Virus record (IMG/VR): IMGVR_UViG_3300033182_000709
Span: 17,449 to 81,448 of that record
Source: a virus
Reading direction: 5' to 3' (one strand)
DNA length: 64,000 nucleotides
Both the position numbers and the translations under genes were made by a program. Under the pieces are notes generated by a model. That model worked only from the letters and a program-made list of their open reading frames with translations, searched no databases and was not told where the DNA came from. Shown piece by piece: positions 49,299-53,592 of this stretch (position 1 is its first letter; the number at the start of each line of letters is the position of its first letter).

Positions 49299-49595
49299 AT
49301 GGATTTTGTTATTAAAGGATTAGTAGCAGTTTTAATGTTATCATTAGTAGATAATCCAATTTGGACTGATAACATGACGGATCAGGAAAAGTGTCAAGCA
49401 GAAGCGGATTATATGGCGAAAAATTATGCTTACCGTCATGTTTATAAATGTATTGGTAAGTTTGAAGGTATCGGTTATGGTGGTTCTCACCCCAAGATTG
49501 GCACCTGTACCCCAAGGTATAAAATGAAACTGACTGGTGATGCGTCAGCCCAATGTGCTAATGGCACATGGGTTCGTGTCCGTAGCTGGAGGTAA
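49299..49595 (+). CDS. small exported protein (98 aa)
   Basis: Hydrophobic start (MDFVIKGLVAVLMLSLVDN) as a signal, then several Cys and a C-terminal module GGSHPKIGTC ... WVRVRSWR. That module is repeated after a tRNA-like insert at 49694-49810. AAGGAG upstream. Function unknown; the exported Cys module might be a surface or lysis factor. Confidence 0.65.
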   Translation: MDFVIKGLVAVLMLSLVDNPIWTDNMTDQEKCQAEADYMAKNYAYRHVYKCIGKFEGIGYGGSHPKIGTCTPRYKMKLTGDASAQCANGTWVRVRSWR

Positions 49596-49602
49596 TTAAG
49601 AT

Positions 49603-49692
49603 AGCCAACCTCATGGGGTCAAAAGTCGGAAGCCTAGAGCGATTAGACAGATGGACAACACTAGACTCGTGGGTGCAAATCCCACTTGGCTC
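49603..49692 (+). ncRNA. tRNA-like sequence, degenerate
   Basis: T-arm GTGGG-TGCAAAT-CCCAC (49669-49685) followed by TTGGCT, which pairs with AGCCAA at 49603-49608. About 90 nt, but no standard anticodon arm with U33 was found and the T-loop has TGC for TTC. It may be a decayed tRNA or another structured RNA. It lies between two copies of the same coding module. Confidence 0.4.
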
Positions 49693-49693
49693 T

Positions 49694-49810
49694 GGGGGTA
49701 GTCATCCGAAGATTTCTACTTGTACTCCAAGATACAAGATGACTCTTACTGGTGACGTATCTGCACAATCACCAAATGGTAAATGGGTTAGAGTAAGGAG
49801 TTGGAGATAA
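49694..49810 (+). pseudogene. duplicated C-terminal module of the 49299 gene
   Basis: GGSHPKISTC ... WVRVRSWR repeats the last 39 residues of the upstream protein with many synonymous changes, so selection acted on it after duplication. An open frame from ATG 49613 runs through the tRNA-like sequence into it, but that part reads as translated tRNA. No good start was found for the module alone. It could be a remnant, or an exchangeable C-terminal cassette. Confidence 0.55.
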
Positions 49811-49832: not shown

Positions 49833-50039
49833 ATGGATCAAATGGAAAAGGATGAAATTCTTCGTCAAGCAGAAATTGAAAACAAAATAGAAACTGCTAA
49901 GATTTATGCAAAGAAGGGTTGTAAAGAATGTAATGGGAAAGGATATTATTTATTAGATATGATTAATAAAAATAGACCAGCGGATAAATATCTACAATAC
50001 TGTGCATGTGTCTATAAAAATATGAAAAAATATTCGTAA
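49833..50039 (+). CDS. small protein with DnaJ-type CxxCxGxG motif (68 aa)
   Basis: 68 residues; CKECNGKGYY (residues 30-39) is one repeat of the DnaJ zinc motif and CAC near residue 57 may complete the site. Charged helical N-terminus. Function unknown; perhaps a small chaperone-like adaptor. Confidence 0.65.
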   Translation: MDQMEKDEILRQAEIENKIETAKIYAKKGCKECNGKGYYLLDMINKNRPADKYLQYCACVYKNMKKYS

Positions 50040-50065
50040 AAAATTTGAAGTGTAATTTCTAGGTG

Positions 50066-50071
50066 TATAAT
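50066..50071 (+). promoter_or_regulatory. extended -10 of the nrdA leader
   Basis: AGGTGTATAATTA, with a weak TTGAAG 15 bases upstream. The start is expected at about 50078, at the first stem of the leader RNA. Confidence 0.6.
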
Positions 50072-50076
50072 TATTT

Positions 50077-50277
50077 GCTGGGATATAAAGACGCTATATA
50101 TGAGCTAAAGCGACACTTTCCAGCCAATACTAGATGTTAGTTAAGAGCATACAATTTATTATAAACGTATATTAACCTTGATGAAGATAATTGATATATG
50201 TTCAACACTAACAACATACCCTGTGTCGCTTATGAAAATTACACCCGTTGAAGTTTATTCTTTAACGGGTTTTTTTA
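50077..50277 (+). ncRNA. structured leader RNA with terminator before nrdA
   Basis: GCTGG (50077-81) pairs with CCAGC (50120-24), and inside it CGCT (50092-95) with AGCG (50109-112). AAGCGACAC (50108-116) is perfectly complementary to GTGTCGCTT (50223-231), which excludes the CGCT/AGCG pairing. TGTTAGT (50135-141) pairs with ACTAACA (50207-213). ACCCGTT (50243-249) and AACGGGT (50264-270) with seven T form an intrinsic terminator 20 bases before the nrdA ATG. It is either a riboswitch-like attenuator or a separate small RNA; no known class recognised. Confidence 0.6.
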
Positions 50278-50296
50278 TCTACTACAAGGAAAAAGT

Positions 50297-52534
50297 ATGA
50301 ACATTAGAGTTAAGAAGCGTAATGGAAAACTGGAAGAGTTTAATGTTGAAAAGATTCATCAGATTGTAGATTGGGCATGTAAAGGTATTAATGGAGTTAG
50401 TTTTTCTGATATTGAAATGAATGCAGAACTTGCTCTACATGACAAGATACATTCTACTGAGATACATGATATTCTTATTGATTCTGCAAATGATTTGATC
50501 TCTGAAGAGGAACCTAACTATCAGTTCGTTGCGGCGAAACTTCTTAATTTTAAGCTTCGTAAAGATGTATGGGGTGGTTATAATCCTCCTCGTTTGTTTG
50601 ATCACATTAAAGACTTAGTAAAATTAGACCTATATGATCCATCTGTAAAGTCAGCATACACTAAAGAAGAAATAAATAAGCTTGGTGAATATATCAAGCA
50701 TGATAGAGATTATCTATTCACCTATTCTGGTTTGCAACAAATGGTTGATAAGTATCTACTGAAGAATAGAAATACTGGAGTACTCTATGAATCTCCTCAA
50801 TTCGCTTATATGCTTATTGCCATGGTTTTATTTATGGATTATGGAGAAGATAGAATCAGAAGGGTAAAAGAGGCATATGATTATTTTTCTACTTTTAAGA
50901 TTAACTTACCAACTCCAGTTATGGCAGGTGTTAGAACAAAGATTCGTCAGTTTGCTTCCTGTGTGCTTGTGGACGTTGGGGATAGCTTAGATAGTATTAC
51001 TTCGTCTGTAGCAAGTGTTGCTAAGTATACTGCTCGTCGTGCTGGTATTGGATTGAACTTTGGCAGGGTTAGACCTCTGAATTCACCAATTAGAGGTGGA
51101 GAAGTCATTCATACTGGCATTATTCCATATCTCAAGCTATTTGAGTCAGCAGTAAAAGCTACAAGTCAGAATGGTATTCGTGGTGGTAGTGCTACGGTCA
51201 ATATTCCGTTTTGGCATTATGAGATTGAAGATGCAATGGTATTGAAGAATAATGGTGGAACTGACGATAATAGAGTTAGAAAACTTGATTATTGTATTCA
51301 ATTCTCCAAAGTATTCTATGAACGATTAATTAAAGATGAAGAGATTACACTACTATCTCCATCGGAATGTGAAGGTCTATATGATGCTTTTGGTCATGAG
51401 GAATTTGATAATTTATACTTGGAATATGAGTCTCGTAATGACTTACAGTTTAGTAAGAAAGTTAAAGCAAGAAAACTTGCAGAACTATTTGCGAGAGAAA
51501 GATTAGAGACTGGTCGTATTTACGCAATGAATGTAGACCATTGCAATCAAAATGGTAGTTGGAATGTTGATGTAAAGATGACAAACCTTTGCGTAGAGAT
51601 TACCCATCCAACTAAACCATTAAATCACATTGATGACCCAGAAGCAGAGATTGGTATTTGTATTCTATCTGCTATCAACTTGATTGAAATTAATAATGAT
51701 GACGAGTTGCAAAAAGCATGTGAGATTACAATTAGATTACTTAATTCACTAATTGATTATCAGGATTATCCTATTAAAGCAGGAGAAACCTTTACATTAA
51801 ATCGTCGTTCATTGGGAGTTGGTATCACTAATCTTGCTGGATTCCTAGCAAAGAATAAATTATCTTATTACACTCCAGAAAGTTTGGAAGTTGTTGATGA
51901 ATGGATGGAAAAGATACAGTATTATTTACTTGATGCCTCTTGTATGATGGCAGAAGAAAGTGGTGCTTGTCCTAAGTTTGATGAAACAAAATATGCACAA
52001 GGATTATGTCCATATGATTGGGCGAATGATAATGCAAAAAAGATTGTAAAAAGAAAACCTTCTATGGATTGGAAGGGTTTAAAGAAAAGAATCCAAGAAC
52101 ATGGGTTGAAAAACTCTACTGTTAGTGCTATAATGCCTTGTGAATCGTCAAGTGTTATTCAGAATAGTACTAATGGAGTTGAACCAGTGAGGAGATTACT
52201 GACATATAAGAAAGCTAAAAATGGAATGTTGAAGCAGTTAGTTCCTTCATTTCATAAGAATAGAAAGTATTATGATTTGGCATTTGATTTTCAGAACAAT
52301 AAACCCTTGATGGATATGATTGCTACTTTACAGAAATGGATTGATATGTCTATTTCAACTAATAGTTATTACAACTATGCTCATCATGAAGGTGGTAGTA
52401 TTCCATTGAGTGTTATTATTAAAGATTTAGTTTATGCTTACAAGGTAGGAGTTAAGACTTTGTATTACGCTAATAGTCCAGATGGTGATGTTGATGCTAC
52501 AAGTGGTTGCGATGGTGGAGGTTGCTCGGTATGA
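50297..52534 (+). CDS. nrdA: ribonucleotide reductase class I, alpha subunit (745 aa)
   Basis: ATP-cone at residues 1-90 (VKKRNGKLEEFNVEKIHQIV). Catalytic barrel with ASCVLVD (active-site Cys near 216), NMT-type VDVKMTNLCVEI with the second Cys, PCESSSVIQNSTNG, and the redox-relay C-terminus CDGGGCSV. Reduces ribonucleoside diphosphates. Ends in an ATGA overlap with nrdB. Preceded by a terminator-bearing leader. Confidence 0.96.
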   Translation: MNIRVKKRNGKLEEFNVEKIHQIVDWACKGINGVSFSDIEMNAELALHDKIHSTEIHDILIDSANDLISEEEPNYQFVAAKLLNFKLRKDVWGGYNPPRLFDHIKDLVKLDLYDPSVKSAYTKEEINKLGEYIKHDRDYLFTYSGLQQMVDKYLLKNRNTGVLYESPQFAYMLIAMVLFMDYGEDRIRRVKEAYDYFSTFKINLPTPVMAGVRTKIRQFASCVLVDVGDSLDSITSSVASVAKYTARRAGIGLNFGRVRPLNSPIRGGEVIHTGIIPYLKLFESAVKATSQNGIRGGSATVNIPFWHYEIEDAMVLKNNGGTDDNRVRKLDYCIQFSKVFYERLIKDEEITLLSPSECEGLYDAFGHEEFDNLYLEYESRNDLQFSKKVKARKLAELFARERLETGRIYAMNVDHCNQNGSWNVDVKMTNLCVEITHPTKPLNHIDDPEAEIGICILSAINLIEINNDDELQKACEITIRLLNSLIDYQDYPIKAGETFTLNRRSLGVGITNLAGFLAKNKLSYYTPESLEVVDEWMEKIQYYLLDASCMMAEESGACPKFDETKYAQGLCPYDWANDNAKKIVKRKPSMDWKGLKKRIQEHGLKNSTVSAIMPCESSSVIQNSTNGVEPVRRLLTYKKAKNGMLKQLVPSFHKNRKYYDLAFDFQNNKPLMDMIATLQKWIDMSISTNSYYNYAHHEGGSIPLSVIIKDLVYAYKVGVKTLYYANSPDGDVDATSGCDGGGCSV

Positions 52535-53592
52535 TGACTGTATTAAATAAAAAAAACGTAGATACTACAACTCAACCTTTGTTTTTAGGTGAACCTTTAG
52601 GTTTACAAAGATATGATAGATTTAAATACCCTGTCTTCTGGGAACTTTATAATAAACAAATAGAGTTCTTTTGGCGACCAGAAGAAATTGAGCTTAAAAA
52701 AGATAGGGCAGATTTCCAAACACTTACAGATAATGAGAAGTTTATTTTTACTTCTAACTTAAAGTATCAAACAATGCTTGATAGTGTTATCTGTCGTGGT
52801 GTTCCTACACTGCTTGAATACGTTAGCAATCCTGAACTGGAAGCATGTCTAAATGTATGGGGTTTCTTTGAGCAAATTCATAGTACATCATACAGTTATA
52901 TCATTAAGAATGTTTATGCAGACCCAAGTTCTGTATTTGATTCTACACTGGAAGATAAAGAAATTCTTAAGAGAGCAGAAAGTGCTATTGAGGATTATAA
53001 TAAACTAGGATATGGAACATATAAAGACATTAAAGAACAACTTTATATGACCCTTATCAGCATTAACATTTTAGAAGCGGTTCGCTTTTATGTTTCATTT
53101 ATTTGTTCTTTCTCTTTTGCAAAGAATAAAAAGATGATTGGTAATGCAGATATTATTCGTCTAATCAAGAGGGATGAAGCGGTTCATCTATACAACACTC
53201 AAACTATTCTAAACATCTTGAAAGATGAAAAGTCTGAAGGATTTCAAGAGGTAGTTAAGAAGTGTCATGATGATGCAATTGCTATGTTTGAAAGAGCAGC
53301 AAATGAGGAAAAGGAATGGGCATCTTACCTATTTAAGGATGGATCTTTGATTGGTTTGAATGAAACTACTCTTCATGGTTATATTGAGTGGTTAGTTGAT
53401 TCGCGTCTTGATACACTTGGATTTCCAAAGATTTATAATGCAAAGAAAAATCCTATCAAGGGTTGGTCAGATGCATTTATGAATAGTGAAGCAGTCCAAG
53501 TTGCACCACAAGAAAGTGAAATCACATCCTATAAAATTGGTGCATCTAAAAATGATTTAGATGATTTGAGTTTTGATGACTTAAGTTTATGA
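52531..53592 (+). CDS. nrdB: ribonucleotide reductase class I, beta subunit (353 aa)
   Basis: FFWRPEEIELKKDRADFQ, SNLKYQTMLDS (iron-ligand Asp), FFEQIHSTSYSYII with Glu and His ligands and the radical Tyr, and later RDEAVH. All residues of a class Ia di-iron tyrosyl-radical subunit are present. Start 52531 after GGTGGAGG. The acidic tail contains repeated DDL motifs, probably for alpha binding. Confidence 0.95.
   Translation: MMTVLNKKNVDTTTQPLFLGEPLGLQRYDRFKYPVFWELYNKQIEFFWRPEEIELKKDRADFQTLTDNEKFIFTSNLKYQTMLDSVICRGVPTLLEYVSNPELEACLNVWGFFEQIHSTSYSYIIKNVYADPSSVFDSTLEDKEILKRAESAIEDYNKLGYGTYKDIKEQLYMTLISINILEAVRFYVSFICSFSFAKNKKMIGNADIIRLIKRDEAVHLYNTQTILNILKDEKSEGFQEVVKKCHDDAIAMFERAANEEKEWASYLFKDGSLIGLNETTLHGYIEWLVDSRLDTLGFPKIYNAKKNPIKGWSDAFMNSEAVQVAPQESEITSYKIGASKNDLDDLSFDDLSL

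What the first reader, a model, noticed from the sequence alone, without database searches (positions are those of the whole stretch)
50066..50296. Pseudoknot-capable leader RNA with terminator in front of nrdAB
Within 200 bases there are two long-range helices (9 bp and 7 bp, perfect), a competing local hairpin sharing the same bases, and an intrinsic terminator ending 20 bases before the nrdA start. Mutually exclusive pairing plus terminator is the layout of an attenuation switch. Ribonucleotide reductase is a natural target for nucleotide-sensing control. No known riboswitch consensus was recognised.
Basis: partly seen in the sequence, partly recalled or inferred. Interest (0 to 1): 0.75.

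Follow-up and report, generated by a model that had tools for sequence, protein, structure and literature searches.

The report
Pseudoknot RNA before phage ribonucleotide reductase
Just before their DNA-building-block enzyme gene, some uncultured phages make a short, intricately folded RNA that ends in a stop signal for transcription; the RNA has been kept while the enzyme gene behind it was swapped, even for an unrelated cofactor class, so it looks like a previously undescribed RNA control element for that enzyme.

Summary
Window 50077-50276 encodes a ~200-nt RNA: a promoter-like -10 element, helix P1 starting at the predicted +1, hairpin P2, a 9-bp pseudoknot (50108-116/50223-231), hairpin P3, an intrinsic terminator, then the nrdA ribosome site. 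I found 13 distinct members in IMG/VR phage contigs, none in Rfam, cultured-phage blastn searches or a pattern scan of 84,980 bacterial/archaeal genomes. The pseudoknot pairs in 116/117 cells with two compensated pairs; P1 covaries at nearly every pair. Eight members precede class Ia nrdA and five precede class II nrdJ. Trees show the reductase gene was replaced under a retained RNA. No promoter fits between terminator and start codon, so the reductase must be reached by read-through: a conditional terminator is the best reading. Not supported: the 50050-58 helix (in the promoter, absent from distant members), and a terminator/antiterminator exchange (no conserved antiterminator); the competing hairpin occurs only in nrdA-linked members. 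A small Cys4 protein gene upstream occurs in every RNA-bearing locus and in no RNA-less one, which suggests a protein partner but may be shared ancestry. Ligand or partner unknown; no transcript data.

The parts
49833..50039 (+). 68-aa Cys4 protein (CxxCxGxG ... CxC..K..KKY); possible partner, found in every RNA-bearing locus
   Evidence: ORF; present in all RNA+ loci and in no RNA- locus; invariant Cys; no Pfam/PHROG match
50062..50071 (+). promoter-like element GGTGTATAAT (-10 50066-50071)
   Evidence: GGTGTATA in 13/13 members, 5-7 nt before P1; 6 copies on + and 0 on - strand of the window, mostly just before genes
50077..50083 (+). helix P1, 5' strand; predicted transcription start
   Evidence: covarying helix
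50091..50095 (+). hairpin P2, 5' strand (A[C]GCU, C92 bulged)
   Evidence: 52/52 cells paired in the hand alignment; pair 4 is U-A, G-C or U-G
50103..50106 (+). hairpin P2, 3' strand (AGCU)
50108..50116 (+). pseudoknot 5' strand AAGCGACAC
   Evidence: 116/117 cells paired, 2 pairs with double changes
50118..50124 (+). helix P1, 3' strand
50135..50151 (+). hairpin P3, 5' strand (50135-141 and 50145-151)
   Evidence: helix at a fixed place with unrelated sequence in the members
50197..50213 (+). hairpin P3, 3' strand (50197-203 and 50207-213)
50223..50231 (+). pseudoknot 3' strand GTGTCGCTT
50243..50276 (+). intrinsic terminator (11-bp stem, U7 tail)
   Evidence: a terminator-like hairpin in all 13 members, weaker U run in L254/L258
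50286..50290 (+). ribosome-binding site AAGGA of nrdA
   Evidence: sequence
50297..52534 (+). nrdA, class Ia ribonucleotide reductase large subunit
   Evidence: NF006578 913 bits, above cut-off
52531..53592 (+). nrdB, class Ia small subunit (start codon not certain)
   Evidence: NF006576 389.6 bits, above cut-off

Best explanation
A cis-acting leader RNA controls phage ribonucleotide reductase by conditional transcription termination. Transcription starts at about 50077, the RNA folds into a compact P1-P2-pseudoknot-P3 body, and polymerase then meets the terminator at 50243-276. Under one condition it stops and releases a ~200-nt RNA; under another it reads through into nrdAB (nrdJ in relatives). 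Shown: the conserved fold, the order promoter element-RNA-terminator-reductase, linkage to the reductase in every member, and retention of the RNA while the reductase gene was replaced. Inferred: the promoter, that termination is conditional, and that the fold senses something (a nucleotide-type ligand, or the small Cys4 protein encoded upstream).
For: Pseudoknot 99.1% of cells paired, 3 cells with both sides changed, 0/500 shuffles reach that, against 21-54% paired when slid. P1: 6 of 7 pairs with double changes, 0/500 shuffles for paired cells, covariation score 0.68 against at most 0.19 slid. P3 at a fixed position with unrelated sequences. -10 element 5-7 nt before P1 in 13/13. Terminator then ribosome site and start codon, with no room for a promoter, whereas many RNA-less relatives have terminator, then TTGACA/TATAAT promoter, then nrdA. 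In two pattern scans of viral contigs, based on the first members found, every genuine hit lies before a reductase gene. The same RNA precedes class Ia nrdA and class II nrdJ. NrdA tree: RNA label needs 4 changes, at least 2 by starred branches; neighbour-gene tree: 1.
Against: No conserved antiterminator; no transcript, ligand or termination data; terminators could be constitutive but leaky; members of a phage group at one locus would stay linked to the reductase even if the RNA did something else.
Confidence: 0.6

Rival explanations
1. A trans-acting phage small RNA: promoter, stable pseudoknotted body, constitutive terminator; the reductase downstream lives on leaky read-through.
For: 5' end at a helix and 3' end at an intrinsic terminator are typical of a stand-alone RNA; no conserved antiterminator; the RNA was kept while the reductase gene was replaced.
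Against: Always directly before a reductase with no other promoter for it; upstream gene varies (Cys4 gene or dCMP deaminase) while the reductase position does not.
Confidence: 0.2
2. Protein-assisted antitermination (a specific form of the best explanation): the small Cys4 protein acts on the RNA or promoter complex so that polymerase passes the terminator, an arrangement like lambda Q - pR' - 6S RNA - tR' - late genes.
For: Cys4 gene in all RNA+ loci and no RNA- locus although RNA- loci keep the same neighbour gene; it lies directly upstream in the window; CxxC-X23-CxC resembles the lambda Q zinc motif CxxC-X22-CxxC.
Against: Profile match to lambda Q covers only 30 columns at probability 16%; PHROG hits to a Q-like family are at noise level and at inconsistent places; no fold match; co-occurrence may be shared ancestry.
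Confidence: 0.2
3. A metabolite riboswitch for a (deoxy)nucleotide acting on the terminator (another specific form of the best explanation).
For: Conserved junction stretches AUAAAG/UAAAG around P2 and a compact pseudoknot; control target is reductase of either class; dCMP deaminase next door in 5 members.
Against: No ligand evidence; no conserved antiterminator; junction AUAAAG not strictly invariant (L066, L254).
Confidence: 0.3
4. Ordinary end-of-gene terminator plus chance pairings.
For: An upstream gene ends 23 nt before the promoter element; terminators before nrdA are common in relatives.
Against: Covariation and fixed geometry in 13 members.
Confidence: 0.02

Closest known systems
2'-deoxyguanosine riboswitch of Mesoplasma florum (PMC12268651)
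   Same: Leader RNA controlling transcription of a ribonucleotide reductase gene through a terminator
   Different: That is a purine-riboswitch fold with an explicit antiterminator; this RNA has no Rfam match, another topology and no conserved antiterminator
Cobalamin riboswitch on Streptomyces nrdABS (from memory)
   Same: RNA control of class Ia reductase
   Different: No cobalamin-riboswitch match here; this RNA also precedes B12-dependent nrdJ
Lambda Q / pR' / 6S RNA / tR' late-gene switch (from memory; lambda gene order)
   Same: Gene for a CxxCxGxG zinc-motif protein, then promoter, ~200-nt RNA, terminator, target genes
   Different: Cys4 protein is 63-77 aa and not shown homologous to Q; the RNA body here is conserved and pseudoknotted
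HK022 put antitermination RNA (from memory)
   Same: Phage RNA that could act in cis on polymerase at terminators
   Different: put is a pair of simple stem-loops of about 70 nt; no similarity tested or seen
HDV-like ribozymes (from memory)
   Same: P1 at the 5' end and a nested pseudoknot with two hairpins
   Different: Order of hairpin and pseudoknot strand inside the P1 loop is reversed; no Rfam match

Membership tests
Any Rfam 15 family | score at or above the family's gathering score | tested here: not met
   Window: only tRNAs at gathering level; the leader's best is 23.2 bits against 59. Records of 7 other members: none up to E=1
Purine / 2'-dG riboswitch | Rfam purine riboswitch match | tested here: not met
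Cobalamin riboswitch | Rfam cobalamin match | tested here: not met
Terminator/antiterminator attenuator | intrinsic terminator before the controlled gene | tested here: met
Terminator/antiterminator attenuator | conserved alternative pairing that breaks the terminator | tested here: not met
   best duplexes no better than shuffled leaders; competing hairpin in 8/13 and not overlapping the terminator
Riboswitch | conserved structured aptamer-like domain in a leader, linked to related genes | tested here: met
Riboswitch | direct ligand binding | not testable with these tools
   needs in-line probing
Q-type antiterminator (the Cys4 protein) | sequence or fold similarity to Q | tested here: inconclusive
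   probability 16%, motif only; no fold hit

The most novel reading that the evidence does not exclude
A new phage regulatory module, RNA plus a dedicated Cys4 protein or a deoxynucleotide ligand, that sets read-through into ribonucleotide reductase and into which reductases of different class and ancestry have been exchanged.
Probability: 0.35. Interest if true: 0.85.

Novelty: new variant of a known kind. Interest (0 to 1): 0.72.

Why it matters
Phages must expand dNTP pools quickly, yet RNA-level control of their reductases is little described. A leader RNA kept while the enzyme behind it was exchanged between class Ia and class II means the control outlives the enzyme. It gives a concrete system for asking whether an RNA reads the (deoxy)nucleotide pool or partners with a small phage protein to govern termination.

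Tried and rejected
Helix 50050-58/50236-44: 9 bp in the window and its three closest relatives, but runs of 1-3 bp in register in the other nine, and it lies in the promoter region. Leader peptide ATG at 50232 through the terminator: start or frame not kept in L006, L066, L210, L028 (inspection). NrdR boxes: none seen by eye, not scanned. Pattern scans: searches (L082, coding; mostly a coding sequence; 28 genome hits, all judged chance), most extra hits coding. Simple structural descriptor too noisy. First covariance model misses long-P2 members at default filters. The pattern used too short a gap and is uninformative. Huge-phage nrdJ loci lack the RNA. Fold searches of the Cys4 protein uninformative.

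Full report
1. Observation. The 9-bp (50108-116/50223-231) and 7-bp (50135-141/50207-213) long-range helices, the hairpin GCUGGGA/UUCCAGC (50077-83/50118-124) and the terminator (50243-276, 20 bases before the nrdA ATG) are all present. The first 9-bp strand lies inside the hairpin loop, so it is a pseudoknot. A G+C-rich 9-bp helix of this kind is rare by chance (2/1000 shuffles); a second, A+T-rich 9-bp helix at 50050-58/50236-44 is not remarkable. The 745-aa gene behind it is class Ia NrdA, followed by NrdB.

2. Relatives. NrdA-based retrieval gave six close contigs (L002-L007; four distinct leaders) with the same leader, and reading upstream regions of more distant nrdA loci revealed L028, L033 and L066. 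Two core-pattern scans of 2.9 million viral contigs added L210, where the gene behind the terminator is not nrdA but a class II, B12-dependent reductase. NrdJ-based retrieval added L254, L256, L258 and L261. NCBIfam puts L210, L256 and L258 above the NrdJ cut-off and the window and L033 above the class Ia cut-off. In all there are 13 distinct sequences. The pattern scan of one genome per bacterial/archaeal species gave only hits I judge to be chance, and blastn of three leaders against cultured phages found no relative. Rfam has no match.

3. Structure. P1: 87/91 cells paired, with double changes at six of seven pairs in the nine-sequence alignment. Pseudoknot: 116/117 cells, with C-G to U-A and G-C to A-U compensations (AAGUGACAC/GUGUCACUU in L028; AAGCAACAC/GUGUUGCUU in L258). 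P2: A[C]GCU/AGCU in the window group, AGCG/CGUU or AGCU/GGUU elsewhere. P1 and P2 registers were chosen by hand; the pseudoknot columns come from an ungapped MAFFT block, although the pieces given to it were cut by hand, and the tool-made counts carry shuffle and slide controls. P3 begins 9-14 nt after P1' and ends 7-10 nt before the pseudoknot 3' strand in the members, with unrelated sequences.

4. Transcript. GGTGTATA precedes P1 in all 13, with 5-7 nt between the -10 hexamer and P1, so P1 starts at the predicted +1. A clear -35 is missing, and the motif occurs six times on the coding strand of the window and never on the other, mostly just before genes, so it may be a phage-specific promoter. 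The helix at 50050-58 is therefore outside the RNA made from this promoter, and it is not conserved. Downstream, the terminator is followed at once by the ribosome site. In many RNA-less relatives the order is terminator, then promoter, then nrdA. With RNA, the reductase can be reached only through the terminator.

5. How it works. This order, and its conservation before two reductase classes, makes conditional termination the best reading. Something else must couple the fold to termination: a ligand, a protein, or a direct effect on polymerase. This step is inference.

6. Partner and evolution. A 63-77-aa Cys4 protein gene is present in every RNA-bearing locus and in no RNA-less one, while RNA-less loci keep the same coiled-coil neighbour gene. 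On the neighbour-gene tree the RNA label needs one change, although that single origin is weakly supported; on the NrdA tree it needs four, at least two by well-supported branches. L028, L033 and L066 group with nrdJ phages by neighbour gene but sit among RNA-less phages by NrdA. The reductase gene was therefore replaced behind a retained RNA, including a change of class. In five members a dCMP-deaminase-like gene lies between the Cys4 gene and the RNA. Co-occurrence may reflect shared ancestry. The Cys4 protein has a lambda-Q-like zinc motif but no demonstrable homology to Q.

7. Known systems. The nearest in function is the 2'-deoxyguanosine riboswitch before a reductase gene in Mesoplasma florum (PMC12268651); the nearest in layout is lambda Q/pR'/6S/tR'. 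Neither is the same family. A 2013 survey of phage reductases (PMC3653736) does not mention leaders, terminators or promoters in its text, and searches of the paper library found no description of such an RNA. The library is incomplete.

8. Limits. No expression data; all members are from metagenomic contigs; sampling is limited to patterns and reductase loci that I could scan.

Noticed in passing
49833-50039: Small Cys4 protein gene that co-occurs perfectly with the leader RNA across about 350 fetched loci; no known family.
   Followed up: partly
8912, 16154, 43311, 48145, 50062, 62364: GGTGTATA occurs six times on the coding strand and never on the other, mostly just before genes: a candidate phage-specific promoter motif without a clear -35.
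   Followed up: partly
49299-49595 and 49613-49810: Two neighbouring ORFs share a nearly identical C-terminal ~36 aa (GSHPKI..CTPRYKM..TGD.SAQ..NG.WVRVRSWR); the second lacks the N-terminal part, like a partial tandem duplication.
   Followed up: no
L020, L032, L039, L059, L338-L340 upstream of nrdA: In unrelated phage nrdA leaders a terminator also sits 25-40 nt before the start codon, in several cases (e.g. L032, L039, L339, L340) with a promoter-like site before it; promoter-leader-terminator-nrdA may be a recurrent layout.
   Followed up: partly
L028, L033, L210, L256, L261 just upstream of the promoter: Inverted repeat AAAAGTTG..CAACTTTT (AAAGTTG..CAACTTT in L210) shared by nrdA- and nrdJ-linked members; possible operator or upstream terminator.
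   Followed up: no
L028, L033, L066, L210, P3 apical region: Conserved unpaired ACAACAAA motif in the P3 loop.
   Followed up: no
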